DNA of 64,000 nt from positions 1,854,001 through 1,918,000 of the forward strand of contig NZ_JALQCS010000001.1 of NCBI RefSeq assembly GCF_023277115.1, given 5' to 3'. The DNA comes from Acidithiobacillus acidisediminis (GTDB lineage Bacteria; Pseudomonadota; Gammaproteobacteria; Acidithiobacillales; Acidithiobacillaceae). The position numbers and the translations under genes are program-made. Below, one piece after another: positions 6,581 through 29,454 of the stretch. Position 1 is the stretch's first letter; the number at the start of each line of letters is the position of its first letter. The notes under the pieces were generated by a model. It worked only from the letters and a program-made list of their open reading frames with translations. It was not told the origin of the DNA and made no database searches.

Positions 6581-7937
6581 GAGGGTGGCGCACTGTTGCT
6601 AGAAAGGGTTTCGAAATCTGATCAGCAACGAAGAGGTGCGCCATGAGAGAAGATAGCAAAGTGGTAGAGGGATTGGCAGGGCTGGAGGTGGGGATCGAAG
6701 AGATCCTGCGGCAGGGGGCAAGACGTTTGGTCCAACAGGCGGTGGAGGCTGAACTGGTGGCGGTACTCGAAGAGCTGAGCACGGTACGGACCGTGGATGG
6801 GCGTCGCGCCGTGGTGCGCAATGGCTACCAGCCGGAGCGGGAGATACTGACCCGCCTGGGTCCTGTTCCGGTGCGAGTACCCAAGACTCGGGACCGCTCG
6901 GGATCGGGGTTGGGATTCCGCTCTTCTTTGGTCCCGCCCTATGTTCGCCGTTCGCAGACCATCGCTGCGGCCCTGCCATGGCTTTATCTGCACGGTATTT
7001 CCTCTGGCAAGCTGCGCGAGGCGCTGGTCGTGCTGTTGGGCGAGCAGGCTCGGGGACTCTCTCCGGCGGCCCTGGGGCGCCTCAAGGCGGAGTGGGCGCA
7101 GGAGCATACCGAATGGCAGCGCCGTTCCCTCTGTGGCAAGCGCTATGCCTACTGGTGGGCCGATGGCATCTACACCAACCTGCGTGCGGAAGATGACCCA
7201 CGCATCTGTCTCTTGGTCATCATCGGCGTGACCGCTGAAGGGAAGAAGGAGATCGTGACGGTCACCGACGGCCTGCGCGAATCCAAGGCGTCCTGGCTCG
7301 AAGTCCTGCGCGACCTGCGGGATCGAGGCGTGCAGGAAGCCCCCTTGCTGGCCATCGGCGACGGGGCCTTGGGCTTCTGGTCGGCGCTGAGCGAGATCTA
7401 TCCGCAGACACGCCATCAACGCTGCTGGGTGCACAAGACCGCCAACGTCCTCAACGAGTTTCCCAAGCGGCTGCAGAGCCAGGCCAAGGCCGCCCTGCAG
7501 AACATCTGGATGGCCGAGACCAAAGAGGCGGCAGAGCAGGCCTGGCGGGTCTTTGTGCGCAACTACCAGGCCAAGTACCCAAAGGCGGTAGAGAAGCTCC
7601 AGAAGGACCGCGACGTACTGCTGGCCTTCTACGACTTTCCCGCAGAGCATTGGCTCCACATTCGCAGCAGCAATGCCATCGAGTCCACCTTTGCGACCGT
7701 TCGCCAGCGCAGCAGCCGCAGCAAGAACTGCGTCTCGCGCAGCAGTTTCCTGGGACTGAGCTTCAAGCTCATCCAGCAAGCGGAAAAACACTGGAAAGGG
7801 ATTCGCTACCCGCAGAGGCTCCGAGACCTCTTTGCCGGGGTGATCTTTGTCGATGGGATGCCGGCCAATGAAACCCAGCCCGACCCCCAACAGGACGCCG
7901 CCTGAATCATGTCAGCAAATCCTGATACACCACTCTT
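6581..7937 (+). mobile_element. IS256-family insertion sequence
   Basis: About 1.36 kb with a single transposase gene. Ends are estimated: the left outer sequence GAGGGTGGCGCA and the reverse complement of the right outer sequence AAGAGTGGTGTA agree at 8 of 12 positions. Flanks GACCTGAG (6573-6580) and GACCATAG (7938-7945) match at 6 of 8 positions, not a clean target duplication. The element separates a truncated primase-like gene from a truncated relaxase gene on the other strand, suggesting a deletion accompanied insertion. Confidence 0.65.
6643..7905 (+). CDS. IS256-family transposase
   Basis: A full-length 420-residue DDE transposase of the mutator/IS256 family. The catalytic residues are visible in YWWADGIYTNLR (first Asp), LAIGDGALGFW (second Asp) and SNAIESTFATVRQR (Glu). 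RYAYWWADGIY and HQRCWVHKTANVLN are the signature blocks of this family. It looks intact, with no internal stops. Translation starts after GAAGAGG just inside the left end. A long open frame on the opposite strand (6622-7890) is a shadow. Confidence 0.95.
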   Translation: MREDSKVVEGLAGLEVGIEEILRQGARRLVQQAVEAELVAVLEELSTVRTVDGRRAVVRNGYQPEREILTRLGPVPVRVPKTRDRSGSGLGFRSSLVPPYVRRSQTIAAALPWLYLHGISSGKLREALVVLLGEQARGLSPAALGRLKAEWAQEHTEWQRRSLCGKRYAYWWADGIYTNLRAEDDPRICLLVIIGVTAEGKKEIVTVTDGLRESKASWLEVLRDLRDRGVQEAPLLAIGDGALGFWSALSEIYPQTRHQRCWVHKTANVLNEFPKRLQSQAKAALQNIWMAETKEAAEQAWRVFVRNYQAKYPKAVEKLQKDRDVLLAFYDFPAEHWLHIRSSNAIESTFATVRQRSSRSKNCVSRSSFLGLSFKLIQQAEKHWKGIRYPQRLRDLFAGVIFVDGMPANETQPDPQQDAA

Positions 7938-8328: not shown

Positions 8329-10596
8329 ATGCCCATAAGTAGTAGCATCGCTCATGCCGCGAAAAATGCTGACGGATTTTGGCGTGATCCGCACGACCTA
8401 CTAGAGCATCTGAATAGTGTTGGTACGCTGGCCGCGACATTCGCGGAACAATATGGCGGCGACTGGGCCCGATTGGCCGGGCGCTGGCACGATCTCGGTA
8501 AATACCGCCCGCGCTTCCAGCGCTACATCCGCTTGGCCAGTGGCTTTGAGGTCGATGCACACATCAAGGGCGAAGCGGGCAAGGCGCCACATTCTACGGC
8601 GGGGGCCATGCTTGCAACGGATCGCTTCGGTGCGGCGGGTCGAGTGCTGGCCTATCTAATCGCTGGACATCATGCGGGACTCGCAGACTGGTTTGGAGGG
8701 CTGGATGTGCGACTGAGCAACGCAGATAGTCGTGATGAACTCAATGAAGCACTGGCCGAAAATCCGCCCGCAGAATTACTGGATACTGGTGGCTTCAAGC
8801 CAGATTTGCGCATCATCCCAGGTGGCAAGAATGGCTTTGCCCTGTGGGTGCGCATGCTATTCTCGGCGCTGGTGGATGCAGACTTCCTCGACACCGAGCG
8901 CTACATGGACCCGGACAAGTTCGCGCAACGTAACTGCTGGCCTGCGCTTGCCGAGCTAGAGCCCCGCTTCGACGCTCACATGGCGCAGCTGGCTACACTG
9001 GCCCTGCCCACGGCGGTCAACGCCATCCGCGCAGATATTCTGCGCCAGTGTCGGGAAAAAGCCGCGCTCACTCCGGGCCTTTTCTCGCTCACCGTGCCCA
9101 CTGGTGGCGGTAAGACACTCTCGGCTATGGCATTCGCCCTGGCCCATGCGCAAGTACACGGCAAGCGCCGGGTCATTCACGTCATCCCCTACACCAGTAT
9201 CATCGAGCAGACGGCAGACGTCTTCCGCAGCATCTTCGGCGAAGTGGTCATCGAGCATCACAGCAATGCCGAATCCGAACCCAGCCAGGAAAACCACGCT
9301 TCACGCTTGGCTTGCGAAAATTGGGACGCGCCCGTTATCGTTACCACCAACGTGCAGTTTTTCGAGTCACTGTTCGCCGCCCGGACATCGCGCTGCCGCA
9401 AGCTACATAATCTGGTGGATAGCGTCGTCATCCTCGATGAAGCGCAGCTGTTGCCTCCGGAATTTCTACAGCCGATGCTCGACGTACTCAATCTGTTGAC
9501 GCAGCACTACGGCGTGACCGTGGTGCTGTCCACCGCCACGCAGCCCGCCTTGAGCACTCGCGCCTATTTTGACGCGCGCCAGAACCTGCGCGGCCTGGAC
9601 AATGTGCGTGAAATCATCAGCGATCCTGATGCGCTCTACCATTCACTGGAACGCGTGCGGGTACTTCTACCTGCAGATTGGCATACACCCATAGAATGGC
9701 CGCAGCTGGCGTCGGAATTGGCCGCACACGACTCGGTGCTCGCTATCGTCAATACCCGCAACGATGCTCGCGCGTTGTGGGAGCAGATGCAGAAGATCGA
9801 TGCGGGGACGCTGCATCTGTCCGCGCTGATGTGCGGCGCCCACCGTTCGCTGGTCATCGCCGACATCAAGGCGCGACTAAAAGCCGGCATACCTACGCGT
9901 GTGGTCAGCACCCAACTGATCGAAGCGGGCGTGGACGTGGATTTCCCTGTGGTATTTCGTGCGCTCGCAGGGCTCGATTCCATCGCCCAAGCGGCAGGGC
10001 GCTGCAACCGCGAGGGCCACTTGGCCGCCAAAGGCAAGGTCGTCATTTTCGTGCCGCCTAAGCCCGCTCCACCCGGGCTTCTGCGTCGTGGCGAGGACGC
10101 TTGTCGCAGCGTTCTGTACGGCGACACCGAGCAGCCGCTTGCGCTCGAGTGCTTCGCCCGCTATTTCGAGCGTTTGTACCATGCCTGTGAACTCGACAAA
10201 AAAGGCATCTGCGATGACTTGTTCATGGCCGACAACGCGCTTGACGGACGCGAACTGGCCGTCAATTTCCGCACCGCAGCAGAGAAATTCAAATTGATTT
10301 CAGATGAAGACAGCATGCCCATCGTTGTGCGTTACCAGGGCGTTAATGGCCAGGACGACAGCATCAACAAGTGGCTAGCGACCTTGCGTAAAGATGGTCC
10401 CGAACGCTGGCTGATGCGCAAGCTGCAGCGCTACACTGTTAACCTGCATCGCATCCAAGCCATGCAACTGCTCCGACAAGGCGACATTGAGGAAATCATG
10501 CCTGGGCTGTTCGCGCAAGTGAGCGATTGGCTGTACGACACCACCCTTGGCCTCAATCCCGAGGGCACTCCGGTTCACCCTGTTTGCATCGCATGA
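8329..10596 (+). CDS. cas3: CRISPR-associated helicase-nuclease Cas3 (type I-C)
   Basis: A 755-residue Cas3 with an N-terminal HD nuclease and a C-terminal superfamily 2 helicase. Seen: H27 in LLEHLNS, the H54-D55 pair in GRWHDLGKY, a further His pair in AGHHAGLADW; Walker A TGGGKT at about residue 258; DEAQ box at about 369; STATQP (motif III) and STQLIEAGVDVDFP and QAAGRCNREG (motifs V and VI). It cuts and unwinds DNA at targets marked by the Cascade complex. All catalytic motifs are intact, so interference should be functional. It is the first gene of the operon, and cas5 begins 8 bp after its stop. Confidence 0.96.
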   Translation: MPISSSIAHAAKNADGFWRDPHDLLEHLNSVGTLAATFAEQYGGDWARLAGRWHDLGKYRPRFQRYIRLASGFEVDAHIKGEAGKAPHSTAGAMLATDRFGAAGRVLAYLIAGHHAGLADWFGGLDVRLSNADSRDELNEALAENPPAELLDTGGFKPDLRIIPGGKNGFALWVRMLFSALVDADFLDTERYMDPDKFAQRNCWPALAELEPRFDAHMAQLATLALPTAVNAIRADILRQCREKAALTPGLFSLTVPTGGGKTLSAMAFALAHAQVHGKRRVIHVIPYTSIIEQTADVFRSIFGEVVIEHHSNAESEPSQENHASRLACENWDAPVIVTTNVQFFESLFAARTSRCRKLHNLVDSVVILDEAQLLPPEFLQPMLDVLNLLTQHYGVTVVLSTATQPALSTRAYFDARQNLRGLDNVREIISDPDALYHSLERVRVLLPADWHTPIEWPQLASELAAHDSVLAIVNTRNDARALWEQMQKIDAGTLHLSALMCGAHRSLVIADIKARLKAGIPTRVVSTQLIEAGVDVDFPVVFRALAGLDSIAQAAGRCNREGHLAAKGKVVIFVPPKPAPPGLLRRGEDACRSVLYGDTEQPLALECFARYFERLYHACELDKKGICDDLFMADNALDGRELAVNFRTAAEKFKLISDEDSMPIVVRYQGVNGQDDSINKWLATLRKDGPERWLMRKLQRYTVNLHRIQAMQLLRQGDIEEIMPGLFAQVSDWLYDTTLGLNPEGTPVHPVCIA

Positions 10597-10604
10597 GAGG
10601 TCTT

Positions 10605-11270
10605 ATGAAGCCTTACTGCCTTGAACTTTCTGGCCCCTACGCCTGTTTCACCCGGCCGGAAATGAAGGTCGAACGGGTGAGCTACGACGTGATGACTCCT
10701 TCGGCCGCACGCGCCTGCTTCGAGGCGATTCTTTGGAAGCCAGCAATCCGCTGGCATGTGCGCCGCATCGAGGTGCTCAAACCCATCCGCTGGATCAATC
10801 TGCGGCGTAACGAGGTGGCTGGTGTGGTCTCCAGCCACAATGTCCAGACCGCTATGAAGAATGGTCAAGGCGACCTAGCTCTCTATATTGAGGATGACCG
10901 CCAGCAGCGCGCCGGGCTGTTCTTACGCGATGTGGCATACCGGGTGCATGCCGATCTGGAGTTCCTGCCCGCGCACGACCCTGAGGCCCGCGCACCGAAG
11001 TATCACGAGATGTTCGAGCGCCGCGCGGCCAAGGGCCAATGCGTCAATCAGCCCTACCTCGGCACCCGTGAGTTCGCGGCGCATTTCCGGCTCGTTGACG
11101 ATAAAGCCACCGAGCCACAACCTATCGATGAATCCCGCGACTTAGGTTTCATGCTGCACGATTTGGACTTCTCCAACCCAGCCGACCCACAGCCGCGCTT
11201 TTTCCGCGCGCGCATGGAGCAAGGCGTGGTGCATGTTCCAGCCTGGGACAGCGCGGAGGTGCGGAGATGA
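10605..11270 (+). CDS. cas5: Type I-C Cas5 (Cas5d/Cas5c), pre-crRNA endonuclease
   Basis: A 221-residue Cas5 protein of the I-C kind. MKPYCLELSGPYACFTRPEMKVERVSYDVMTPSAARACFEAILWKPAIRW is the canonical start, with the family's glycine-rich and Y/P-rich N-terminal block. In type I-C, which lacks Cas6, Cas5 cleaves the CRISPR transcript within the repeat and stays bound to the crRNA 5' handle. The start at 10605 follows GAGAGG; the longer upstream frame (from 10527) runs into cas3. It overlaps cas8c by the 4-bp ATGA, implying coupled translation. Confidence 0.95.
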   Translation: MKPYCLELSGPYACFTRPEMKVERVSYDVMTPSAARACFEAILWKPAIRWHVRRIEVLKPIRWINLRRNEVAGVVSSHNVQTAMKNGQGDLALYIEDDRQQRAGLFLRDVAYRVHADLEFLPAHDPEARAPKYHEMFERRAAKGQCVNQPYLGTREFAAHFRLVDDKATEPQPIDESRDLGFMLHDLDFSNPADPQPRFFRARMEQGVVHVPAWDSAEVRR

Positions 11271-13021
11271 TTCTGCAAGCTCTGAATCGTTACTACGACC
11301 GGGTTGACAGCTTGCCGCGCGAGGGATGGGTGCGCCGTGGCGTCGATTATGTCGTTGTTCTCGACGAGCAGGGTGAATGCGTCAACCTCGAAGCTGTCGG
11401 AGAACGGAGTAAAGGTAAGACCATTCCGCGCGACATGCTGGTTACCGCCATCGGCAAGCAGGCGATGAAGCACACCAACAGCGGCAAGGATGCCAATCTG
11501 CTCTGGGACAACGCCAGTTTCGTGTTTGGCAAAGGCAATAAGGGCGACGTCAAGCTGTGTGGCTTCATAGACACTCTTCAAGAATGGCTTGGTGACCTAA
11601 ACGATAAAGGCGTCGAAGCCGTGCGTCGGTTCTGCATCAACCTTCGTGACAACCCCGAAGCCTCCACAGCATTAGTACATCGTTTCCAAGCCAAAGACGA
11701 TTTCGAGAAGCGCGACCCAGTTCTGATCTTTCGCCTTATCTCCGATATGGAGGGCATTCACCTACGTCCCGCCGTCCGCGATGCATACGAAACAGCGCTG
11801 GCCGCTTCGCAAGCCGGCAGCGAACTGCACGGCAATTGCTTAGTAACCGGTGAGGTTGATGTGCCACTTGCACCGAACGAATCCGTCATAAAGGGCGTTT
11901 GGGGCGGGCAGTCTGCCGGGTGCAATATCATTTCCTTCAACGCCCGCGCATTTGAGTCCTACGGCAAACGCGAACGCAATGGTGAAAACGCGCCGGTCAG
12001 CTTGCATGCTTCATTCGCCTACACCACCGCATTGAATCACCTGTTGGCATCGAAGCAGCGCATTCAGGTCGGTGATACCTCCACTGTGTTCTGGGCCGAG
12101 GAGCCCCACGAGTTGGAAGATACATTGACCGATCTCTTCGGCGAACCACTCAAGGACAACCCGGACAAAAACACTGAAGCGATCAAGGCCCTGTATACGT
12201 CCGTAGCGTCGGGGCAGTTCAGTGTCGGCAGGCCGGATACCCGCTTCCATGTGCTCGGCCTTGCACCCAACGCAGCGCGCATCAGCATCCGCTTTTGGGA
12301 AACTGCCACAGCCAGCGAGTTGGCGCGGCGCATCAGGCAGCACTTCGAGGATGTGGCCATCGTCCACACCATCTACGAACCTGAACATCTGTCATTATTT
12401 CGCCTGCTCACCGGCGTGGCGCTACTGAACAAGTCTGACAACATCCCGCCCAACCTCGGCGGCGAAGTCATGCGCGCCATCCTCGAAGGCCTGCCTTATC
12501 CGGCCACCCTGCTCAATCTGGCTGTGGCGCGCTGCCGCGCCGAGCAAAAACCCACCTATGCCCGCGCCGCTGCCATCAAGGGCAGTATTAACCGCTGGAT
12601 TCGTTCACGTCATACCCAAGAGAAGGAGTTCGCGCCCATGCTCGATCCATCCAATGCCAACCCGGCCTATCGGCTGGGTCGACTGTTCGCCACGCTGGAA
12701 AAAATCCAGGAAGACGCCAGCCCCGGACTCAACGCCACCATCCGCGACCGCTACTATGGCGCGGCGTCGAGCACCCCAGCTGCGGTGTTCCCGACGCTGC
12801 TGCGGTTAAATAAGCACCACCTCGGCAAGCTGGCCGCCGGTCTCGCGATCACCCGTGAGAGGCTGATTGGCGAAATCATGGACGGTTTCGATGCCACCGC
12901 CTTCCCGCCGCGTATCCTGCCCCTGCCAGACCAGGCGCGTTTCGCCCTCGGCTACTACCAGCAACGCCAAGCCTTTTTCAGTAAACCCTCCCCCGTCACC
13001 GTCAAGGAGCAAACCCTATGA
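11267..13021 (+). CDS. cas8c: Type I-C large Cascade subunit Cas8c (Csd1)
   Basis: A 584-residue Csd1-family protein, the large subunit that recognises the PAM and helps load Cas3. Recognisable segments are [13 protein letters not shown] at the start, [23 protein letters not shown] (typically SFN...AFxSYG in Csd1) and [25 protein letters not shown] near the C-terminus. It is close to the usual family length and undisturbed. The start overlaps cas5 by 4 bp and the stop overlaps cas7 by 4 bp. Confidence 0.95.
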
Positions 13022-13950
13022 GTATCGCCAATCGCTATGACTTTGTGCTGCTATTTGATGTGAAAGACGGTAATCCCAATGGCGACCCTGATGCCGGCAA
13101 CTTGCCGCGCCTGGATGCCGAAACCGGACATGGGCTGGTGACTGACGTAGCATTGAAGCGCAAGGTACGTAACTTCGTGGCCATGACTCGCGATCAGGAT
13201 GAACGCGACCCGCAGCCGGGAGAAAAGCGTTTTGAGATTTACGTGCGCGAGAAAGCCATCCTCAATCTACAAAACCAGCGTGCTTACTCCGCGCTGCAGC
13301 TAGATGTGGAACCGGCTGAGGCCGATTCCGACGGAGCCCCAGAGAAAAAACCTGTCAAAAAGCGTAAGGGTGGCGGCGACGAAGTGAACAAGGCCAGAGA
13401 CTGGATGTGCCAGAATTTTTTCGACGTACGCACCTTCGGAGCGGTTATGTCCACCGGCATCAACTGCGGCCAAGTGCGCGGACCAGTGCAGCTCACCTTT
13501 GCGCGTTCGGTCGATCCTATCATCGCGCAAGAGCATTCGATTACCCGCATGGCCGTAGCTACCGAAGCTGAAGCCGAAAAGCAGGGAGGCGATAATCGTA
13601 CCATGGGCCGCAAGCACACCGTTCCATACGGCCTCTATGTCGCGCATGGCTTCATCTCCAGCTTCCTCGCCAGGCAGACCGGTTTTTCAGACGCCGACCT
13701 AGAACTGCTATGGCAGGCGCTTGGCCAGATGTTTGACCATGACCGCTCGGCTGCGCGCGGGGAAATGGCAACACGCAGGCTGTACGTGTTCAAGCACGAG
13801 TCGGAGTTGGGCAATGCGCCGGCGCACTCGCTATTCGAGCGCATCCAGGTGGTGCGAAAGGTAGACGTGCCGCGCAGCTTCGCGGACTATGAAGTCGTCG
13901 TGAACGAGGCGGAGTTGCCCTCAGGCGTGACGCTTCTAAGCATGGTTTAA
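13018..13950 (+). CDS. cas7: Type I-C Cascade backbone Cas7 (Csd2)
   Basis: A 310-residue Csd2/Cas7 protein, the subunit that polymerises along the crRNA spacer. [33 protein letters not shown] is the family signature (FDVxxxNPNGDPD) forming the RRM core; [28 protein letters not shown] and [20 protein letters not shown] are further conserved blocks. An acidic-to-basic linker near residues 98-125 ([14 protein letters not shown]) may be a flexible loop. It is followed 4 bp later by the end of the convergent toxin gene, so the cas transcript must read through that module to reach cas4. Confidence 0.96.
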
Positions 13951-13954
13951 GATG

Positions 13955-14248
13955 CTACCGCCGCCCGGACCAATACCCCGGACGACGACGGTCACTGGCG
14001 ATGGCGAGTACCCGCAGGTGGCCGCTATCGATACGATAAATGATCGAGTAGGGATAACGACGAATGATTATTCTGCGCGTATCGCCAGAGGAAGGCGCGC
14101 CGATAGCTGGGTGCGCGCTGATCAATTGCAAGCTGCGCTGCACTTCGTTTCTGAAGTGCATTGCATGCGCTTCCCCAGCTTCATCGGCGTACCAGATTGC
14201 TGCGTCAGCAAATTCTTGCCGGGCTGCTGGGTTGAACGAGATTTTCAC
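13955..14248 (-). CDS. RelE/ParE-superfamily toxin
   Basis: A 97-residue toxin starting at a GTG whose last bases overlap the antitoxin stop (GTGA). The sequence VKISFNPAARQEFADAAIWYADEAG ... TRRIIIRRYPYSIIYRID ... VLAIASDRRRPGYW is the common ParE/RelE plan: an N-terminal helix pair, the central RR(Y)PYxIIYR strand and a terminal AIAxxRRRPGYW. ParE members poison gyrase and RelE members cut mRNA; the sequence does not decide which. It is read against the cas genes and its stop lies 4 bp from the cas7 stop. Confidence 0.88.
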   Translation of the reverse strand: MKISFNPAARQEFADAAIWYADEAGEAHAMHFRNEVQRSLQLISAHPAIGAPSSGDTRRIIIRRYPYSIIYRIDSGHLRVLAIASDRRRPGYWSGRR

Positions 14249-14496
14249 CGCGTCCGTTTGGCGATAAGGGCATCGACTTCCTCGAACACCTTTTCGGCAG
14301 GAATCCACTGCGTGTGTCCCGCTTCCAAGTCGGCTACACGCCGGGCAATTTCTTCATCCCAGGCCTTAGCAATGGTCTCTGGAGAATCCTCTGGCTCCTC
14401 TTCCAAGCTCACGATGAGACGATGGGCTAGCTCGCTGCGCTCGTGCGGCGAAAGCTGCAAGGCTTGGTTTTCAATCTCTTGGAGTATCGCGACCAT
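14245..14496 (-). CDS. Addiction-module antitoxin (RelB/StbD-like, PF09720 type)
   Basis: An 83-residue acidic helical protein: VAILQEIENQALQLSPHERSELAHRLIVSLEEE followed by AKAWDEEIARRVADLEAGHTQWIPAEKVFEEVDALI. This is the addiction module protein type usually paired upstream of a ParE/RelE toxin. Gene order (antitoxin first) and 4-bp overlap with the toxin are as expected. Its start at 14496 lies 47 bp from the divergent cas4 ATG at 14544, so its promoter must lie in or near cas4's own upstream region. Confidence 0.85.
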   Translation of the reverse strand: MVAILQEIENQALQLSPHERSELAHRLIVSLEEEPEDSPETIAKAWDEEIARRVADLEAGHTQWIPAEKVFEEVDALIAKRTR

Positions 14497-14543
14497 GATT
14501 TGCCTCGTATCATTGCTGCCTTATGTAACAGGATAGCACCTGC

Positions 14544-15170
14544 ATGGTGACCGATACAGACCCCATTCCCCTCTCCGCTCTTCAGCACTGGACCTACTGC
14601 CCGCGACAGTGCGGCCTGATCCACCTGGAGCAGCAGTTTGCGGAGAATATCCACACGGCACGCGGGCAGGCAGTGCATCATTTGGTGGACACGCCCGGCT
14701 ACGAGGTCCGGCACGGAGTGCGGGTGGAACGGGCGTTGCCGCTGTGGTCGGACCGGCTGGGGCTAATCGGCAAGGCAGATCTGGTGGAATTCCACCCCGA
14801 CGGTACAGTGTTTCCTGTGGAATTCAAGCATGGGCGAAAACAACAAAAGATCCATGACGACATTCAACTTGCCGCCCAAGCCATCTGTCTGGAAGACATG
14901 CTGTGTCGACCGGTTCCGCAAGGGGCAATTTTCCATGCCAGCAGCCACCGCCGACGTGTGGTGAGCATCACCCCCGAACTTCGAGCACTGGTGGTGGAAG
15001 CTGCGGAGGCTATTCGCGCCATGCTCACTTCCGGCAAGCTGCCGTCTCCGGTGAATGACGCACGCTGCAAGGAATGCTCACTCAGGGACATTTGCCAGCC
15101 TGAGGCCCTGACCTCCCTTGAAAAGCAGCGTGAGCAACACACGCGCTTATTTGATGCGGAATGGCCATGA
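14544..15170 (+). CDS. cas4: CRISPR-associated exonuclease Cas4
   Basis: A 208-residue RecB-like Fe-S nuclease that trims prespacers and helps set PAM and orientation during acquisition. The four iron-sulfur cysteines are available as C19/C23 (YCPRQC) near the N-terminus and C175, C178, C184 (CKECSLRDIC) near the C-terminus. RecB-nuclease residues are visible in GKADLVEF (D79) and FPVEFKHG (E93, K95). It is separated from cas7 by the toxin-antitoxin pair, but its stop overlaps the cas1 start, so the adaptation genes remain coupled. Confidence 0.95.
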   Translation: MVTDTDPIPLSALQHWTYCPRQCGLIHLEQQFAENIHTARGQAVHHLVDTPGYEVRHGVRVERALPLWSDRLGLIGKADLVEFHPDGTVFPVEFKHGRKQQKIHDDIQLAAQAICLEDMLCRPVPQGAIFHASSHRRRVVSITPELRALVVEAAEAIRAMLTSGKLPSPVNDARCKECSLRDICQPEALTSLEKQREQHTRLFDAEWP

Positions 15171-16201
15171 TCACCCTGCAAAACACTCTCTACGTAATGA
15201 CCCCACAGGCTTATGTCCACTTGGACAACACAACATTGCGAGTAGACGTGGAGCATGAAAAACGCCTACAAGTGCCCCTGCACCATGTGGGCGCGCTGGT
15301 TTGTTTTGGCAACGTGATGGTCTCGCCTGCCTTGGTGCATCGTTTGGCCGACGAAGGGAAGTCCCTGGTGCTGCTGGATGGCTTCGGTCGCTTCAAAGCA
15401 CGCATGGAAGGACCGATCTCAGGAAACATCCTGCTTCGCCAAGCCCAATATCGGAGCGCCAACGACGCTGCAATAACACTGGAACTAGCCCGTTCCTGTG
15501 TAGCGGGCAAAATCCGTAATAGCCGCACGCTGTTACAACGTGGAGCTAGGGAAGCCAAAGATCTGGAGGACGCGAACCAATTGAATATAGCTACTAAACA
15601 CTTGGCTGCATCCCTGCGCTCCACAGCAGAGGCATCAGGAGTAGACGAGCTACGGGGGATCGAAGGCGACGCAGCACGCTTTTACTTCTCGGCGTTCAAT
15701 TACATCATTAAGCCCAACATGCGTACGCAATTTCAGTGGAACGGCCGCACAAGGCGCCCGCCCCTGGACAAGCTCAATGCCCTGTTATCCTTTCTCTATT
15801 CCATGCTGATGAATGACTGCCGTTCCGCCCTAGAGACGGTTGGCCTTGATCCCCAGCTCGGATTCTTGCACGTAATGCGCCCTGGCCGGGCAGCATTGGC
15901 TCTTGATCTACAGGAAGAATTCCGTGCCGCCATTTGCGACCGGTTCGCGCTCACTCTAGTCAACCGTGGTCAACTCAGCAACGGCGATTTTGAAGAACGA
16001 GAAGGTGGGGCAGTACTGCTTGCGGACAAAGGTCGACGTAAAGTCGTGGCTGCGTGGCAGGAGCGGAAGCAGGAGGAAATCACCCATCCCTTGCTGGATC
16101 AAAAAATGCCCATTGGCCTGCTGCCCTTCGTGCAAGCACGCTTGATGGCACGTAGCATTCGGGGAGAGATGGTCAGTTACTTACCCTATCTGGCGCGTTG
16201 A
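15167..16201 (+). CDS. cas1: CRISPR integrase Cas1 (type I-C)
   Basis: A 344-residue Cas1, the metal-dependent integrase that inserts spacers. Conserved metal ligands are E166 (RGIEGDAAR), H235 (GFLHVMRPG) and D247/E250 (LALDLQEEF). [19 protein letters not shown] at the N-terminus is the I-C type start. I use the ATG at 15167, which makes the 4-bp ATGA overlap with cas4 seen elsewhere in this operon; an ATG two codons upstream (15161) is also possible. cas2 follows after 10 bp. Confidence 0.96.
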
Positions 16202-16211
16202 GGACCGAATC

Positions 16212-16502
16212 ATGCTTATTATCGTCACGTATGATGTCTCCACTGAAACCGCGGCTGGTCGCAAGCGGCTTCGCCGTGTGGCCAAAGCCTGTGAGCGTGT
16301 CGGCCAAAGAGTGCAAAAGTCCGTATTCGAATGCCAGGTCAATGCAATACAATATGAAGCTTTCGAGCGCGAGTTACTGGCAGAAATCGATGAAAAGGAG
16401 GACAATCTGCGCTTCTATCGCATCTCTGAACCAACCGATCTCCGCATCAAGCAATATGGCACCTTCCGGTCCATCGATTTCACGGCTCCCCTCGTCATTT
16501 GA
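16212..16502 (+). CDS. cas2: CRISPR adaptation protein Cas2
   Basis: A 96-residue Cas2 with the ferredoxin-like start [13 protein letters not shown] (D8 is the conserved acidic residue), [26 protein letters not shown] and the terminal RFYRI and IKQYG segments of type I-C Cas2. It dimerises and bridges two Cas1 dimers. It is the last cas gene and is followed by the CRISPR leader. Confidence 0.96.
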
Positions 16503-16681
16503 GGCGCGAACCCGGTTCGTCGCTCTTGAACCCGCCGTTTCGCGCACCGCTCAACGTATTGTTTATATTCCATTCTATGATATGTTCCTTGCGGTGAACC
16601 GATGTCTCAAACGCCTCTTGCTCAGGTTCGCGCAAAGAATAGAAAAAGTTCTTTTACAACAGACGGTTGTATGTTTGTGGG
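16503..16681 (+). promoter_or_regulatory. CRISPR leader
   Basis: The 179 bp between cas2 and the first repeat are noncoding, with an AT-rich core (about 16555-16585, TTTATATTCCATTCTATGAT) and an AT-rich end next to the first repeat. By position this is the leader that carries the array promoter and the integration-host contact sites. No single -35/-10 pair is clear. Confidence 0.7.
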
Positions 16682-19600
16682 GTATCGCCCGGCTCATAAA
16701 CCGGGCGCGGATTGAAACCTCTGCGCGATCCTGCATGGTTGGAGGCGGAGAAGGGTATCGCCCGGCTCATAAACCGGGCGCGGATTGAAACATCAGCTCC
16801 GACGGCATGCCGCTGCCGGATATGCGGTATCGCCCGGCTCATAAACCGGGCGCGGATTGAAACTGTATGTCTGGGTCAATCTTCACCGCAGGTCCAGGGT
16901 ATCGCCCGGCTCATAAACCGGGCGCGGATTGAAACAATATAGCGCCGATACACCCTCGGCATTTTGGGAGTATCGCCCGGCTCATAAACCGGGCGCGGAT
17001 TGAAACTTGTCGGGCTTCACGCCTTTTGCGCCGCGCACAGGGGTATCGCCCGGCTCATAAACCGGGCGCGGATTGAAACAGCGACTCAATGGACTCCTCG
17101 ATGCCGATAGAGAGGGTATCGCCCGGCTCATAAACCGGGCGCGGATTGAAACCTCAAAGGCCACCTTGTAGGGCACGCGCCCGTACGGTATCGCCCGGCT
17201 CATAAACCGGGCGCGGATTGAAACATCAGCTCCGACGGCATGCCGCTGCCGGATATGCGGTATCGCCCGGCTCATAAACCGGGCGCGGATTGAAACCATC
17301 GAAGGCCACTTTGTATGGCACGTTGCCATAGGGTATCGCCCGGCTCATAAACCGGGCGCGGATTGAAACCTCAAGCCGCGCGTCAATGCTCGGCAGCCAC
17401 TCGAGGTATCGCCCGGCTCATAAACCGGGCGCGGATTGAAACACGATCTGCCGAGTGTTCGTCGGCGGCAAGGAACGGGTATCGCCCGGCTCATAAACCG
17501 GGCGCGGATTGAAACACCTATGGCCCCTTACTGGCCCTGGGCAATAGCGGGGTATCGCCCGGCTCATAAACCGGGCGCGGATTGAAACGGGCCAACGCCA
17601 ACGCACCCCGGGAACTCGACGCGGTATCGCCCGGCTCATAAACCGGGCGCGGATTGAAACATAAGAGAGGGAAAGAAGAACCCCAATTTCCACAAGGTAT
17701 CGCCCGGCTCATAAACCGGGCGCGGATTGAAACATGTACGGACCCCTCATCGCCCTCGGCAACGCGGGTATCGCCCGGCTCATAAACCGGGCGCGGATTG
17801 AAACACGTTGGCCACGAGCTTGTGCCCCTGGTCAATCACGTATCGCCCGGCTCATAAACCGGGCGCGGATTGAAACCCATGGCGCGGCTTGTACTGGTCA
17901 GCCAACTCCTGTATCGCCCGGCTCATAAACCGGGCGCGGATTGAAACATCAATTGGTTTCCCGGTTGCCGGGTTTTTAACCGGTATCGCCCGGCTCATAA
18001 ACCGGGCGCGGATTGAAACCTAGTGCCCCTGGCCGGTCTCGATTCTCTGGCCTTGGTATCGCCCGGCTCATAAACCGGGCGCGGATTGAAACTTGATCTG
18101 CACGCCAATGGGCACGGTGGAAGGGTCGTATCGCCCGGCTCATAAACCGGGCGCGGATTGAAACACCTCTCCCCAGTTTATGAATCATCAGGACGGCGGT
18201 ATCGCCCGGCTCATAAACCGGGCGCGGATTGAAACTGACTGCGGTTGCTGCATTGAGCATACGATGGCCGTATCGCCCGGCTCATAAACCGGGCGCGGAT
18301 TGAAACTGACTAATCGGATTCACGCCTTCGGGGACGCCCGAGGTATCGCCCGGCTCATAAACCGGGCGCGGATTGAAACTCTTAGCAGGACCAGAGCATG
18401 AAAATTACTGGGATGGTATCGCCCGGCTCATAAACCGGGCGCGGATTGAAACTGATGAGGTTTATCAATTCACCAAAGAGACCGGCGGGTATCGCCCGGC
18501 TCATAAACCGGGCGCGGATTGAAACTATCAACACGTATGAAACGTGCCCGCGTCAGTTTGTATCGCCCGGCTCATAAACCGGGCGCGGATTGAAACTTGG
18601 GAATCGAAACAGGAGAGACAAAATGAGTAAGTATCGCCCGGCTCATAAACCGGGCGCGGATTGAAACTGGATATGGACACGCTGCGCGTCGTGCCGAAGC
18701 CGTATCGCCCGGCTCATAAACCGGGCGCGGATTGAAACAAGACAAAGCGTACCCACACTATGATGTAACAACGGTATCGCCCGGCTCATAAACCGGGCGC
18801 GGATTGAAACTGGGAAATCGAATCCCTCGGTGAATACCATGCAATGTATCGCCCGGCTCATAAACCGGGCGCGGATTGAAACATACAAGTGTGCCGAGAA
18901 GTTGGGGTATCGGTAAGTATCGCCCGGCTCATAAACCGGGCGCGGATTGAAACATGTACTGCCGTACATTATGCCTTTCAACTGGAGCGTATCGCCCGGC
19001 TCATAAACCGGGCGCGGATTGAAACCCTGTACCGCCAGCGGTGTAGGTAGCTCCCGATGCGGTATCGCCCGGCTCATAAACCGGGCGCGGATTGAAACCT
19101 TTTGTAGCTTGGAATATCAGCCTTGCACCGGAGGTATCGCCCGGCTCATAAACCGGGCGCGGATTGAAACACGAGGCGCACGGCCTGCTTGACGCTGCGA
19201 TCCTGGTATCGCCCGGCTCATAAACCGGGCGCGGATTGAAACAGTACCGGAGTAAGTTCATCCGGCCACTGATAGATGTATCGCCCGGCTCATAAACCGG
19301 GCGCGGATTGAAACAGGATATCCAAATCCCAAGCCGAGTTTTGCGGGATGTATCGCCCGGCTCATAAACCGGGCGCGGATTGAAACATCCGCACGATGGC
19401 GCCATAACCAGCCGTCAGCTGTATCGCCCGGCTCATAAACCGGGCGCGGATTGAAACGTCGTCAGCGCGAATTTTCCTTGCGCACTTTCGGCCGTATCGC
19501 CCGGCTCATAAACCGGGCGCGGATTGAAACCGCTGTGCCTCTAGCTCTTCGCGCTCGATGCGCAGGTATCGCCCGGCTCATAAACCGGGCGCGGATTGAA

Positions 19601-20035
19601 ACTTCTTCGTGAACTCGCGCTATGCGCCCGCGCTGGCGTATCGCCCGGCTCATAAACCGGGCGCGGATTGAAACCACAGGACGTCGCGCCCATCGTGAGC
19701 GCGGGAATGTATCGCCCGGCTCATAAACCGGGCGCGGATTGAAACCGCCATACCATAGGCATCACGCGAAACGAAGTGAGGTATCGCCCGGCTCATAAAC
19801 CGGGCGCGGATTGAAACCACTCTTGGCGGAACGCTCTGATCAGCATTTCTTCCGGTATCGCCCGGCTCATAAACCGGGCGCGGATTGAAACCTCTGGTGC
19901 TGATGGATTGGGATATTGTCCAGATCGGTATCGCCCGGCTCATAAACCGGGCGCGGATTGAAACAGGAACTGGCAGAACTCGGGCTGCCCGAAGAAGCGT
20001 ATCGCCCGGCTCATAAACCGGGCGCGGATTGAAAC
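16682..20035 (+). CRISPR. Type I-C CRISPR array, 47 repeats and 46 spacers
   Basis: I counted 47 copies of a 37-bp repeat that begins GTATCGCCCGGCTCATAAAC and ends GATTGAAAC; all copies appear identical, including the last. The repeat folds through GCCCGG/CCGGGC. Spacers are 34-37 bp. Leader side is left, next to cas2. Spacer 2 (16792-16826) and spacer 8 (17225-17259) are identical. Spacers 7 and 9, and 12 and 15, are diverged versions of each other. The last repeat is followed by only 32 bp before an ISL3 remnant. The apparent open frames across the array (repeating SIRARFMSRAIP or NPRPVYEPGDT) are repeat artefacts. Confidence 0.99.
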
Positions 20036-20067: not shown

Positions 20068-21371
20068 GGTTCCTCGACGTTTCATGTGGGTAACCTGAGA
20101 TCTAGCTTGCCCAAGATGAGGTAGGCCATGTTGATGAAGTTCTTATGGGTACGGTAACCCCGAGCCTTGGCCTTGGCGGACTGCAGAAGGCTGTTGAATC
20201 CCTCCAGAATCCCGTTGGTGATCTGGCTCTCGAACCAGCGCAATGCCCCGTCCCAATGGTTCATGAGGGTGTAGGTGACTTTGACCAGAGGGGGTAGTCC
20301 GCTGGCCTTGGCGTTTTCCATCCAGGCCTTGAGGAGCACAGCGCCTTGGTGGCGATTCTGGATCGTGAAGATTTCTTGGAAGGAGAGGCGGAACTGGTAG
20401 GCCTGAGCCGTCTTGAGGTTCTGGTTCTTGAGGATCTCCTAGAGCTTGGCGCTCTGCTTGGCCGAGAGCTTTCCCGGGTTCTTGAGCCACAGCCAGCGGC
20501 TCTTTTTCAGATCGGGCTGGGAGAGGGCTTCGCTCTTACGCACGGCATCCACGGCCTCATTGATGAGCTTCATCAGGTGAAAGCGATCGAAGGTGATCTG
20601 GGCACGGGGCAGATGCTCTGCAGCGCCTTTTTGGAAGGCCGGCGAGAGGTCCATGCTCACCTCCGTAATGGCTTCGGCGCTACCACCATGGGCCTGCAGA
20701 TCGTCGGAGAACTTCGCAAAAGTCCTGGCGTCCTTGCCAGGGGTAGCAAAGAGCAAACGCCTGGCCTCCAGGTCCACGAACAGGGTGATGTAGTCATGGC
20801 CGCGCCGGCTGCTGGTTTCATCGACACCGATGGCATGGACCTCTGACATGTCTACGGCCTCACGAGCTTTGGCGACGTAATGCTCGATCACTCGCCAGAG
20901 CCGCTGGTCCGTCTCCCGGACCAAGCGGGCGACCGTCAACACGGGCATCTCCCGAACCATGGCCATGACCATAGCCTCGAAGAGCAGCGTGAACCCTGAG
21001 CCTTCCCGCGCCCAGGGGACGGGCACCAAATGCACAGCGTGTTCCGGGCACTGGACCCGCGGCACCCGCGCATGGAGGTAGGCCCCATGCTGGAAGAAAT
21101 CGAGGTGGCGCCAGACCTTCTCCTGCGTGTCATAGACGGGGCAGTCCTAGCCGCAGACCGGACAAGGGAAGTGGCTCCCCTTGGGGAAATTGACGTGCAG
21201 GTCCAGCCGCTTCTCCTCCACGGTAAACCGTACATCGTCCACCGCCCACGGTGGAACCAAGCCCAATGCCAGTGTGAACAGTTGATTCCCTTGGTCCATC
21301 GTTTCCCTCAGCTCGCTGCCCGCTCTATCAGGCAATCATACCGCCTTACCCACTCGAAATGTCGAGGAGCC
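20068..21371 (-). mobile_element. Decayed ISL3-family insertion sequence
   Basis: A 1.3-kb element with good terminal inverted repeats: left GGTTCCTCGACGTTTC (from 20068) and, on the other strand, right GGCTCCTCGACATTTC (from 21371), continuing to GTGGGTAA in both, with about 22 of 26 positions matching. The single transposase gene inside carries two amber stops. No 8-bp target duplication is seen (TAATTGCC left, CCAAATGA right), so one flank has probably been lost. Confidence 0.85.
20082..21299 (-). pseudogene. ISL3-family transposase, interrupted by two in-frame TAG codons
   Basis: Reading from the ATG at 21299 gives FTLALGLVPPWAVDDVRF ... FPCPVCG, then TAG (21149-21147), then continues in the same frame with a zinc-ribbon remainder (RVQCPEHAVHLVPVPWA), the catalytic region VHAIGVDETSSRRGHDYITLFVD and DLSPAFQKGA and FDRFHLMKLINEAVD, another TAG (20441-20439), and the C-terminal block ESQITNGILEGFNSLLQSAKAKARGYR. 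Joined, it is a normal-length ISL3 (about 400-residue) DDE transposase. Everything except the two stops is intact, so inactivation seems recent. Confidence 0.9.
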
Positions 21372-25232: not shown

Positions 25233-25380
25233 GGCAAAGCAGCATCCAGCGCCTTTTCGGCTTTGTCGCGGAATTTGCTTGCCATCCTTGGACTCCCTTC
25301 GCGGTGCCGCCAGGCAGCATAACGGTTAAAGATACTAAGATTTTGGCAGCTTGTCCGTTCGTCAAAGGGAGGAAGAAAAG

Positions 25381-28300
25381 ATGGCCGCTGTTTGCCCACA
25401 CTGTAACAGCCACGATACTGCCTGGAAGCCCAAAGCCCGGCAGTGGGAGTGCCAGGACTGTGAGCAACGTTTCGATGCCCCTGCGCCTGCCCCAGAGGAC
25501 ATACCAGATCCACTAGCGCTGCGGGAAGACGAGTTTCGCGCTCGCGCCAAAGGCCTTGCCGATTCTGACGCCTGGTGCAGCGACGTTCTCGATCATTGGC
25601 CGGCACCGATCGCCTATACCTATGCCTTGTTGCGCAGTACGCTGAAAAGGGGGCAGATTGATGCAGCGGCCTTGGTGCTCAAGGATTTCGCCGAATTGCT
25701 CGCTCGTTTCTCGACCCTGGCCATGACCTGCGAGATCCGGGAGAAAGGGCCAGAAGACAAGCGCCGCGAGGTGTTGTCCCAGCTCTTCGCCAAACCTCTG
25801 ACCATGGGAGACTGGGTGCGTCTGGCCGATGGCCTGGCAAAGTGGCTGGAAGCCGAGCCCCAGCGGCAGCCGGACTGGCTCACGCGGCCCATTGCCCGCT
25901 TGTGGCGCAGCGGAAAAAGACAGACCGTATTGGGCCGAGTGCTGGAGCAAATGGTCCGTTGGCGCAACGAGACCATCGGGCACGGGGTTCGGGGAAGCGA
26001 TCTGGAACCCACCATGCAAGGCCTGGAGCGTTTTTTAGGGGCTGATGGAGAAAACAATCTGCATCGAGGGTTGCAGGCCGCTGGCAACATCGGAGAAGGG
26101 CTGCTATTGATCGACGACAGGGAGCGTGCCCTTATGGGGAGCCAGGCGCTGCATGCCCCGCAGCAGCAGCAATCTGTCGAGCATCCACTGGAGCCTTGGC
26201 AGGGGCTCTGGCTCCAACGTCGCAGCGATGGGGAAAAAATCTCCCTGAGCCCCTACCTGGCCGTGCGCCGCTGCGAAGTCTGCGGTCGTGCCGAGACTTT
26301 CCATTACGACTGCCTGCGCCCCAAGAAATACCTGCCGGACTTCCGAGTGCTCAACTACGAACAGGGTCACGCATTTCCGGTTCCCCTCCAGGTGGACAGC
26401 GGCCTGCTGGAAGAATGGCGACGGCTGAACATCCCGCAAGAACATCGTGCGGAGATCGATTTCGACAACGATGCAAGCATCCCCGGTGATGTTGTCGAGC
26501 TGCTCGGTCAGCAGGCAATCGAACGAGGCTATCTCTCTCCTGCATATCTGCGCGATCCTTTATGGAAATTCATCGATGACGGGCTGGATTCCGGGCAAGG
26601 TGGACTTTATTGGCTCCGGGCGCCGGCGCATGTCGGAAAGTCTACCTTCGTGCAGGGTTTGGACCCACAGACCGCCGAGATCTTGGGGGAAAAGCCGTTG
26701 CGGGACGACCTGGCCGTGGTCAGCTTCGCGATACGACGGGAGTACCACTACCACTTGGCCCAGTTTGCCGATGGGTTGCGGGATCTGCTCAAAGTCGCGC
26801 TCAACCTGAGCGCTGGCACGCAGGTACTGCCCAGCCTCGACATCGCCAACCCAAGCCCACAGGCATTCTTGACGTTCCTGAAGGACTTCCAAACCCTGGG
26901 GAGAAAACCCATTCTCGTCATTCTGGATGGTCTGGACGAGCTCGCCGAGGAACATCCCGGCATCCTCGACCTCTTGCCGAGTCCCGATGAGATGCCGGAA
27001 AAAGTCTTCCTCCTGCTCACCTCGCGTCCTCTCGCCGACTGCGATCTCTGGATACAGAACCGGCTGCAGTCACTTCTATCCGCGCCCGGGCGGGAGCTGG
27101 GGCTCGAGGACCCCGAGTATCGGGACTTGCTCCGGGAGTACGCAGAAAAAACTCTGCAAGGAAAAATCCAGGGCCAGCCTCTTGAGGAAATTTTTCCGCA
27201 GCTGCTCGAGCAGAGCGATGCCCGTTTCTTGTACTTCCGCTTCCTGGTCGATCGCCTGAAAGATGGCGATTTGAAAGCGCAGGATCTCCATCACCTGGCC
27301 AGAGCCGAGCACTTGTTGCCGCGATTCGTAAGGGCCTTGCGGGACCGCTATGCCAATACCCCGATGGGAGAGCGCATCGACCGTGCCCTCTATACCCTTG
27401 CGCTGGCGGAGCGCGCTTTTGAGCAGTCGATGCAATCCCTCCCGATTTTGGCGCGCAGTCCCTGGCAAGGTTTGCCCATGCCGGTACTCTGCGAGATGGT
27501 GGAGGGCACGCCGCGAATGACGCCAAACCTCGTCAATCTCCTCTACCTATTGAAACCCTTGCTGTCCACTTGGCGTGGCGAGAGCGATGGTCCCCGGTAC
27601 CGCCTGGGTATCAAGGGGCTGGAGGATCTGCTCAGAGAGGAGAATCCCCAAGCCCTTGCCGATCTGGCACGCCGCTGGGTCGAGAATCTCTTCCTTCGCC
27701 AACGGCAGTGGCTGGATACCCCAGAGGCGGAGCGCGGGGAGGGAAAAGACTTCCGCGGGCCGGCACTGGACTGGGTGCTCCTGCACCTCGATGGCTTGTC
27801 CTTGGAGCTGGATGCCCAGCCGAAACTAAGCATCGCGCCCGATCAATCGCTCAGACAGAGCTTGACCAAAGAGCTGCTGGATCGTGCTAACGCGCACAGA
27901 AACCGATCGCACCATCGGGATGCGTTGCAGCGGATTTCTGCTGCGGATGCTCTACTTCGTTGGGATTGGGAGACAGAGGAAAAAACGCCCTCTCTGCAAT
28001 ATACCTTGGATTCCGATACCTCTCTGTTTTTGTTAACAAATATTAACGAACTTCAAACGTGGTTAAGCATCTGTGAAAGAAGAGGAGCTTCTCTTTTTGC
28101 TATCGGAAATAATGGAGATGCGATAGCTGATTTTGATCGGCCCATAGGCATGTTGAAATTGATCCGCAAACAAAGCGGAGGGCAGCTTTCGCCATACATG
28201 GCTGCCAGCCTAGCCGGATTTTTATCAAATCTAGGCTACACTCTCAGAACCATTGGAAAGAATCGTGAAGCCATTGATGCCGGTAACGAAGCAATCAAGA

Positions 28301-29454
28301 TTTGGGAAGAAATACGAGAAAAACACGGCAATCACTTCACGGTCGAAATGACTACCGGGCTGGCCGCCGCAGAAATAAACCTGGGCAAATCCCTCAGCGC
28401 TGTAGGTCAGAACCAGGCGGCCCTAGACAACCACGAACATGCGATTGACAAGATGGAAACGCTACGGAATCAACTCGGCGAGCAGTTCCCTCCCAAGATG
28501 GCTGAAACTCTGGCCCGCGCGTATGGGAACCGAGGCGTCGTCCGGAGCGACCTCGACCAGAATCAGGATGCCCTAGACGACTACGAGCGCGCAATCCGCA
28601 TCTTGGAGGACCTACATAGCCAATTGAGAAAGGACTTCACGCCCCAGATGGCCAATGGTCTAGCTGTCGTATACTTGAACCGAGGCAACGTCTGTATGGC
28701 TCTCGGTCAGCATGAAGAGGCCGTCTCCGACTACGAGCAGGCGATTGACAGGATGGAATTGCTACGAGAGCAACTCGGCGAGCGGTTCACGCCCGCGATG
28801 GCTGAAGATCTGGCCGGCGCATACATGAACAGAGGCAACGTCTGGCTGGCTCTCGATTCGCATGAAAAGGCCCTCTCCGACTACAAGAAGGCGATCTCTA
28901 TTTGGGTGGATCTGCGCAGCCAATTGGGAGACCAATTCACGCCCGAGATGGCCAATGGTCTAGCTGTCGTATACTTGAACCGAGGCAACGTCTGTATGGC
29001 TCTCGGTCAGCATGAAGAGGCCCTTTCCGACTACGAGCAGGCGATTTATATGAAAAATGCGCTACGGACGCGACTCGGCGAGCAGTTCCCTCCCAAGATG
29101 GCCAACAATCTGGCTAGCTCATTTGTGAACAGAGGTAATGTCCGGAGCGATCTTGGTCAGAATTCGGAGGCCCTCTCCGACTACGATCAAGCGATTTCTA
29201 TGTGGGAGGACCTTCGCAGTCGGCCGGGAGAGCGATTCACGCCCGAGATGGCCAACGATCTGGCCAGCGCGTATGGGAACCGGGGCGTCGCCCGAAGCGC
29301 TCTCGGCCAACATCAAGAGGCCCTGGCCGACTACGAGCAGGCGATCCAGATTTGGGAGGAACTGCGTGACCGGTTGGGAGAACAGTTCACGCCGGATATG
29401 GCGGAAGATCTTCTTACGGCCCAGTCGATGCGGGACAAGTTGCGTGACCATTGA
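25381..29454 (+). CDS. Zinc-ribbon, HEPN-like, STAND-NTPase and TPR multidomain protein
   Basis: A 1357-residue protein; the start follows a strong GGGAGGAAG site. Domains in order: zinc ribbon (C5/C8...C24/C27); a helical region containing WRNETIGHG, in which R195-N196 and H201 fit the R(N)x4-6H motif of HEPN ribonucleases; a second Cys cluster (C298, C301, near C310); an NTPase with Walker A PAHVGKST (about 415-422) and Walker B ILVILDGLDEL (about 511-521) as in NACHT/STAND ATPases; a helical middle; and, from about 911 to the end, eight and a half 50-residue TPR-type repeats. This plan, effector plus STAND switch plus repeat sensor, is that of NLR-like antiphage proteins. Defence function is inferred; domain calls rest on motifs read by eye. 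Confidence 0.75.
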   Translation: MAAVCPHCNSHDTAWKPKARQWECQDCEQRFDAPAPAPEDIPDPLALREDEFRARAKGLADSDAWCSDVLDHWPAPIAYTYALLRSTLKRGQIDAAALVLKDFAELLARFSTLAMTCEIREKGPEDKRREVLSQLFAKPLTMGDWVRLADGLAKWLEAEPQRQPDWLTRPIARLWRSGKRQTVLGRVLEQMVRWRNETIGHGVRGSDLEPTMQGLERFLGADGENNLHRGLQAAGNIGEGLLLIDDRERALMGSQALHAPQQQQSVEHPLEPWQGLWLQRRSDGEKISLSPYLAVRRCEVCGRAETFHYDCLRPKKYLPDFRVLNYEQGHAFPVPLQVDSGLLEEWRRLNIPQEHRAEIDFDNDASIPGDVVELLGQQAIERGYLSPAYLRDPLWKFIDDGLDSGQGGLYWLRAPAHVGKSTFVQGLDPQTAEILGEKPLRDDLAVVSFAIRREYHYHLAQFADGLRDLLKVALNLSAGTQVLPSLDIANPSPQAFLTFLKDFQTLGRKPILVILDGLDELAEEHPGILDLLPSPDEMPEKVFLLLTSRPLADCDLWIQNRLQSLLSAPGRELGLEDPEYRDLLREYAEKTLQGKIQGQPLEEIFPQLLEQSDARFLYFRFLVDRLKDGDLKAQDLHHLARAEHLLPRFVRALRDRYANTPMGERIDRALYTLALAERAFEQSMQSLPILARSPWQGLPMPVLCEMVEGTPRMTPNLVNLLYLLKPLLSTWRGESDGPRYRLGIKGLEDLLREENPQALADLARRWVENLFLRQRQWLDTPEAERGEGKDFRGPALDWVLLHLDGLSLELDAQPKLSIAPDQSLRQSLTKELLDRANAHRNRSHHRDALQRISAADALLRWDWETEEKTPSLQYTLDSDTSLFLLTNINELQTWLSICERRGASLFAIGNNGDAIADFDRPIGMLKLIRKQSGGQLSPYMAASLAGFLSNLGYTLRTIGKNREAIDAGNEAIKIWEEIREKHGNHFTVEMTTGLAAAEINLGKSLSAVGQNQAALDNHEHAIDKMETLRNQLGEQFPPKMAETLARAYGNRGVVRSDLDQNQDALDDYERAIRILEDLHSQLRKDFTPQMANGLAVVYLNRGNVCMALGQHEEAVSDYEQAIDRMELLREQLGERFTPAMAEDLAGAYMNRGNVWLALDSHEKALSDYKKAISIWVDLRSQLGDQFTPEMANGLAVVYLNRGNVCMALGQHEEALSDYEQAIYMKNALRTRLGEQFPPKMANNLASSFVNRGNVRSDLGQNSEALSDYDQAISMWEDLRSRPGERFTPEMANDLASAYGNRGVARSALGQHQEALADYEQAIQIWEELRDRLGEQFTPDMAEDLLTAQSMRDKLRDH
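28111..29451 (+). repeat. Tandem 150-bp coding repeats in the TPR region
   Basis: Eight complete and one partial 50-codon units of the form (H/N)xEALSDYEQAIxxxEDLRxxLGEQFTPEMANxLAxxYxNRGNVxxALGQ. The fourth and sixth units share long nearly identical DNA tracts (for example around 28652-28725 and 28952-29025), 300 bp apart, showing recent duplication or gene conversion. The first two units are much more diverged. Confidence 0.85.

What the first reader, a model, noticed from the sequence alone, without database searches (positions are those of the whole stretch)
17153..17332. Spacers 7 and 9 target diverged versions of the same protein-coding sequence
The reverse complements encode YGRVPYKVAFE and YGNVPYKVAFD. 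Differences fall mostly at third codon positions (TAC/TAT, GGG/GGC, CCC/CCA, AAG/AAA, TTT/TTC). The two spacers were therefore captured at the homologous position in related but distinct invaders, which points to a capture hotspot or primed acquisition, and gives the reading frame of the target.
Basis: seen in the sequence. Interest (0 to 1): 0.66.

Follow-up and report, generated by a model that had tools for sequence, protein, structure and literature searches.

The report
CRISPR spacers re-capturing one phage site
A bacterium's CRISPR memory holds two fragments taken from the same spot, the portal gene, of two different but related phages, and nine further spacers come from the adjoining packaging genes of that phage family; this is a clear record of repeated attack, but of a kind already described in Legionella.

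Summary
Spacers 7 and 9 lie in a 46-spacer type I-C array of a probable Acidithiobacillus relative and encode YGRVPYKVAFE and YGNVPYKVAFD. The predicted target exists: an IMG/VR temperate phage (L009) carries YGRVPYKVAFEEW in its portal gene, in the predicted frame; spacer 7 matches 32/35 beside a TTC PAM. Spacer 9 maps to the same site in relatives. It starts one base earlier, most simply a -1 slip at the same PAM; its exact source was not found.

Spacers 12 and 15 are a second same-site pair (end of terL); spacers 2 and 8 are identical. In all, 11 of 46 spacers (8 sites, all with TTC) hit a 2.45-kb terL-portal-MuF stretch of a 30.9-kb phage contig.

Best explanation: independent captures from at least two phage lineages, concentrated regionally by primed or targeted acquisition and PAM-limited within the region. 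A special hotspot at this site is not needed: three coincident pairs have about a 4% chance once the region is given. Priming is plausible, not proven. A Legionella I-C array shows the same kind of pattern.

Side finding: most recent spacers carry an extra 3' G that seems to come from the leader.

The parts
17153..17187 (-). Spacer 7; reverse complement encodes YGRVPYKVAFE; target = phage portal gene, 32/35 to L009:3315-3349 (-), 5' TTC PAM
17297..17332 (-). Spacer 9; reverse complement encodes YGNVPYKVAFD; same portal site, 27/36 to L012, start shifted by 1 nt (probable -1 slip at the same PAM)
17516..17551 (+). Spacer 12 (TYGPLLALGNSG); end of terL, same site as spacer 15, TTC PAM in L009
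17734..17767 (+). Spacer 15 (MYGPLIALGNA); end of terL, 32/34 to L009:2126-2159, TTC PAM
16792..16826 (-). Spacer 2, identical to spacer 8; start of portal gene, 32/35, TTC PAM
17225..17259 (-). Spacer 8, identical to spacer 2
17370..17405 (-). Spacer 10; terL, 30/36, TTC PAM
17805..17839 (-). Spacer 16; MuF-like gene, 35/35, TTC PAM
17877..17910 (-). Spacer 17; terL, 31/34, TTC PAM
19818..19854 (-). Spacer 44 (old); portal, 26/37 in L009 with TTC, 30/37 in L012
19892..19927 (+). Spacer 45 (old); terL, 31/36, TTC PAM
16682..20035 (+). CRISPR array, 47 perfect 37-nt repeats, 46 spacers
16503..16681 (+). Leader between cas2 and repeat 1, ends GTTTGTGGG; 2 nt longer after the conserved motif than in three relatives
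8329..16502 (+). Type I-C cas operon: cas3 8329-10596, cas5c 10605-11270, cas8c 11267-13021, cas7 13018-13950, cas4 14544-15170, cas1 15161-16201, cas2 16212-16502

Best explanation
[quoted passage not shown] Spacers 7 and 9 were captured separately, at one PAM in the portal gene, from two related but diverged temperate phages. The same happened at the end of terL (spacers 12 and 15) and perhaps at the start of portal (2 and 8). The host was attacked repeatedly by at least two lineages of this phage family. Older spacers against the packaging genes (44, 45) would then have directed primed or targeted acquisition to nearby DNA, filling part of the newer half of the array with spacers from the same 2.45 kb. 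Within that stretch only about 76 TTC sites exist, so some sites were used twice. Shown here: array, target genes, frame, PAM, clustering, sequence divergence within the pairs. Inferred: priming as the cause of the clustering, the second phage lineage (known from its spacers only), and the -1 slip of spacer 9.
For: Target gene, frame and TTC PAM. The pair is homologous coding sequence with mostly synonymous differences and a shifted start, so the spacers are not array copies or decayed duplicates. Clustering: 11 spacers at 8 sites, all in 2.45 kb of the 30,856-bp contig, none elsewhere, although capsid and tail genes are about as conserved and a spacer there would often have been seen. Arrays with the same or nearly the same repeat in three relatives also hit this phage family but more widely. 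Type I-C of Legionella acquires strongly under priming, uses the GAA/TTC PAM and can take the same protospacer twice (PMC5071653). Slipping by 1 nt around a PAM is documented in type I-F (PMC5059440).
Against: No sequenced phage in the collections carries an exact match to spacer 9 or 12, so the second lineage is inferred. The clustering interval was chosen after seeing the data. The source phages could be mosaics that share only the terL-MuF module with the known contig. Strand and position are only weakly informative about priming.
Confidence: 0.7

Rival explanations
1. Independent naive acquisition from related phages, with no priming: homologous sites coincide because TTC sites are few and the packaging genes are conserved enough for targets to be recognised.
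For: Only 76 TTC sites in the stretch, so three coincident pairs among 11 captures have about a 4% chance and two pairs 14%. Conserved genes are easier to recognise as targets.
Against: Over the whole contig (933 sites) three coincident pairs have a chance of about 0.0002, and capsid and tail genes of comparable conservation hold no hits.
Confidence: 0.15
2. A physical hotspot: the terminase-portal region is near the end of the phage DNA that enters first or is cut for packaging, so free-end processing supplies pre-spacers there, whatever spacers the host already holds.
For: Hits cluster next to the terminase genes. Acquisition from free DNA ends and injected phage DNA is known in other systems (cited in PMC7056967).
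Against: Arrays of three relatives hit the same phage family more widely, including the upstream part of terL, the protease gene and tail genes: about 3 of 9 hits inside the stretch against 8 of 8 sites here, Fisher p 0.009, interval chosen post hoc. The ends of the packaged DNA are unknown.
Confidence: 0.1
3. Mosaic source phages: the attackers share only the terL-portal-MuF module with the known contig, and the unassigned spacers come from other parts of the same genomes, so the clustering is an artefact of what is in the databases.
For: 35 spacers have no assigned target; the early half of the phage is not covered by any relative fetched here.
Against: Relatives of the phage that cover the downstream genes share capsid, protease and tail genes with the contig in the same order.
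Confidence: 0.2
4. The 7/9 pair arose inside the array by duplication and mutation.
For: Spacers 2 and 8 are identical, so single-unit duplication in this array cannot be excluded for that pair.
Against: Six of eight base differences in the coding frame are at third codon positions, the start is shifted by one base, and both versions resemble different real phages.
Confidence: 0.01

Closest known systems
Legionella pneumophila type I-C array of strain Toronto-2005 against LME-1 (PMC5071653)
   Same: Type I-C with GAA/TTC PAM; two pairs of spacers in one array target overlapping regions of one 30-kb element, interpreted as naturally primed acquisition; recurrent challenge by one element; two independent captures of the same protospacer seen in the laboratory
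   Different: Here the paired spacers come from clearly diverged phage versions (about a quarter of bases differ in 7/9) and not from slightly changed escape variants, and the newer member of a pair is not always the better match to the known phage (12 is newer than 15 but more distant from it)
Primed and targeted acquisition with slipping in type I-F of Pectobacterium (PMC5059440)
   Same: New spacers are steered by existing targeted sites; captures 1 nt off the PAM occur, and minus slips give longer spacers (spacer 9 is 1 nt longer than spacer 7)
   Different: Another subtype; here a natural array in which priming was not observed directly
Molecular-ruler control of spacer integration and repeat length (PMC6895254, type II-A; cites I-E and I-B)
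   Same: Duplicated repeat length is set by measured integration sites
   Different: Here the proposed shift is on the leader side of a type I-C array and is inferred from sequence only

Membership tests
Type I-C CRISPR-Cas | cas3-cas5c-cas8c-cas7-cas4-cas1-cas2 with subtype-specific Cas8c and Cas5c | tested here: met
   TIGR01863 (Cas8c/Csd1) 498 bits, TIGR01876 (Cas5c) 215 bits, TIGR02589 (Cas7/Csd2) and TIGR03640 (Cas1c) above their cut-offs; Pfam agrees
Type I-C CRISPR-Cas | TTC PAM 5' of the protospacer | tested here: met
   TTC precedes all 8 target sites in the L009 contig; TTC sites number only 933 on both strands of 30.9 kb
Same-site spacer pairs from changed versions of one element (as in Legionella I-C and LME-1) | two spacers of one array map to overlapping positions of related elements | tested here: met
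   7/9 and 12/15
Primed acquisition | an older, imperfectly matching spacer on the same element, with newer spacers clustering around its target | tested here: inconclusive
   Older spacers 44 and 45 target positions 4300 and 3598 (L019 coordinates); the cluster spans 3598-6050; cause and effect cannot be told from one array
Primed acquisition | new captures depend on the resident spacer and the effector complex | not testable with these tools
   needs an acquisition experiment
PAM slipping | spacer start displaced by 1 nt from a canonical PAM in its true source | tested here: inconclusive
   True in the homologous sites of L009 and L012, but the exact source of spacer 9 was not found

The most novel reading that the evidence does not exclude
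Particular PAM sites of this phage family (end of terL, start of portal, and the YGxVPYKVAF site) are intrinsically preferred by this I-C adaptation machinery, so that they are re-captured across diverged phages: a site-level hotspot set by local sequence or DNA processing and not only by regional priming.
Probability: 0.2. Interest if true: 0.45.

Novelty: new member of a known kind. Interest (0 to 1): 0.32.

Why it matters
It links a probable Acidithiobacillus relative to a family of temperate phages through 11 spacers, gives the PAM and the targeted genes, and shows repeated attack by more than one lineage recorded in one array. If the clustering is primed, it is a natural example of old, mismatched memories steering new captures in a type I-C system; if some sites are intrinsically favoured, it bears on how pre-spacers are chosen.

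Tried and rejected
Searches of the array against 50,697 phage and 72,556 plasmid records found nothing. No exact source of spacer 9 or 12 in IMG/VR. No portal homologue in 29 genomes of the family, own genome included, or in 369 genomes of the class, so no sign of a resident prophage source (the tool notes that an empty answer without a positive control shows little). The first 23 spacers matched nothing else in the own genome or in relatives apart from one 28/32 hit that spans an artificial junction of my concatenated query and was dismissed; spacers 24-46 were not tested this way. Array-internal divergence of spacers 7/9 rejected (synonymous differences, shifted start). Spacer 6 (portal) and spacer 42 (small terminase) look like further hits at peptide level but lie within the null range and were not counted. 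Two papers on I-C priming and on bioinformatic signs of priming that I know of are not held.

Full report
What is there. The window carries a complete type I-C cas operon (8329-16502) followed by a leader and an array of 47 perfect 37-nt repeats with 46 spacers (16682-20035). An insertion sequence next to the array is about 80-89% identical to copies on Acidithiobacillus plasmids and matched no other genus in that collection, so the host is most likely an Acidithiobacillus relative (inference). The leader lies on the cas2 side and is conserved in related arrays, so low spacer numbers are recent.

Spacers 7 and 9 align at 26 of 35 positions with a shift of one base, better than any pair in 60 shuffled sets, and as peptides score 52 against a null maximum of 34. 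Six of the eight base differences in the 11 codons are at third positions.

The target. A degenerate pattern for the peptide found one contig among 2.9 million viral contigs: IMGVR_UViG_3300020479_000002, 30,856 bp (L009, continued in L018 and L019), a temperate phage with integrase, CI-like repressor, terminase, portal and MuF-like genes. YGRVPYKVAFEEW lies in the portal gene, in the predicted frame, and spacer 7 matches 32/35 with a 5' TTC PAM. Spacer 9 matches the same site best in the relative L012 (27/36).

Register. In L009 and L012 the portal site reads FEEW or FQEW, and the GAA codon gives TTC on the spacer strand directly before spacer 7. Spacer 9 starts one base earlier, with a C. 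The simplest reading is that it took the last base of the same TTC PAM (a -1 slip), which implies FDEW in its source. That source is not in the collections, so this is inference. Slips of this kind, with longer spacers, are described in type I-F (PMC5059440).

The wider pattern. Eleven spacers (2, 7, 8, 9, 10, 12, 15, 16, 17, 44, 45) at eight sites fall in terL, portal and the MuF-like gene of this phage family, within 2.45 kb, and none elsewhere in the contig. Spacer 16 is a perfect 35/35 match. Every one of the eight sites has TTC in the L009 contig. The null maximum for shuffled spacers on L009 was 68% identity; spacer 9 (69-75%) and spacer 12 (61%) rest on the peptide match and on their partner spacer. 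Relatives of the phage share capsid, protease and tail genes at similar identity. Taking L013 as model source, about 40% of recognisable PAM sites lie in the stretch, so eight of eight by chance is about 0.001; this is a rough, post hoc figure computed by hand from the table.

Hotspot or not. In the whole contig there are 933 TTC sites, and three coincident pairs among 11 captures would be very unlikely (about 0.0002). Within the 2.5-kb stretch there are 76, and three coincident pairs have about a 4% chance, two about 14%. What needs explaining is the region; the coincidence of spacers 7 and 9 follows fairly naturally once the region is given. A modest site preference is not excluded.

Why the region. 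Two of the oldest spacers (44, 45) already target portal and terL, and the later ones lie around and downstream of them, as primed or targeted acquisition predicts. Legionella type I-C acquires strongly under priming, and one Legionella I-C array holds two pairs of spacers on overlapping sites of one 30-kb element, read as natural priming (PMC5071653). A general end-of-genome hotspot is less favoured, because arrays with the same or nearly the same repeat in three relatives also target this phage family but hit the upstream part of terL, the protease gene and probably a tail gene as well, and contain no same-site pairs. Phage mosaicism remains an untested alternative.

Lineages in time. Spacers close to the known phage (17, 16, 15, 10, 8, 7, 2) alternate along the array with more distant ones (44, 12, 9), so at least two lineages seem to have been met repeatedly; it is not a single escape followed by one update (inference from array order).

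Side finding. In this array 28 of 46 spacers end in G, those are one base longer (35.5 against 34.5, p = 5e-5), and 14 of the 15 newest do so against 14 of 31 older ones (p = 0.003). For spacers with an assigned target (spacer 6, tentative, included) the final G mismatches the phage in 7 of 9 cases (mismatch rate elsewhere 15%, p = 5e-5). The final G is therefore probably not phage DNA but a leader base duplicated with the repeat. The leader here ends in GGG and is two bases longer between a conserved motif and the first repeat than in the three relatives, which show no such excess with a length effect. Rulers that set the duplicated length are known from other subtypes (PMC6895254). It also means that spacers 7 and 9 are probably 34 and 35 nt without the added G.

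Verdict. Primed acquisition is the most likely cause of the clustering but is not proven. The kind of event is known.

Noticed in passing
window 16503-16681 and array 16682-20035: 28/46 spacers end in a G that is mostly not phage-derived; nearly all of the 15 newest do. The leader has 2 extra bases and a G-run before repeat 1 compared with three relatives. Suggests that the integration site shifted into the leader during the array's history.
   Followed up: partly
window 16682-20035: The first base of spacers is G in only 2 of 46, against 35 of 117 in related arrays; unexplained.
   Followed up: no
window 13955-14496 (-): A toxin-antitoxin-like pair (a TIGR02574 addiction-module component and an upstream-overlapping 117-aa ORF that looks like a RelE/ParE toxin but hit no NCBIfam model) sits on the opposite strand between cas7 and cas4.
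   Followed up: no
window 6643-7905 and 20082-21065: The CRISPR-Cas locus is flanked by a transposase-like ORF upstream of cas3 (resembles IS256 type, not tested) and an ISL3-like element downstream of the array (up to 89% to ISAtc2), so it may have moved as a unit.
   Followed up: no
L065 (G022 array): An array with the identical repeat in another genus of the family carries spacers against terL, portal and the protease-like gene of the same phage family, mostly with TTC PAMs.
   Followed up: partly
window 25351-29454: A 1367-aa ORF with a P-loop-like middle part and a long C-terminal run of repeats that look like TPR; possibly a defence or signalling protein (not searched).
   Followed up: no
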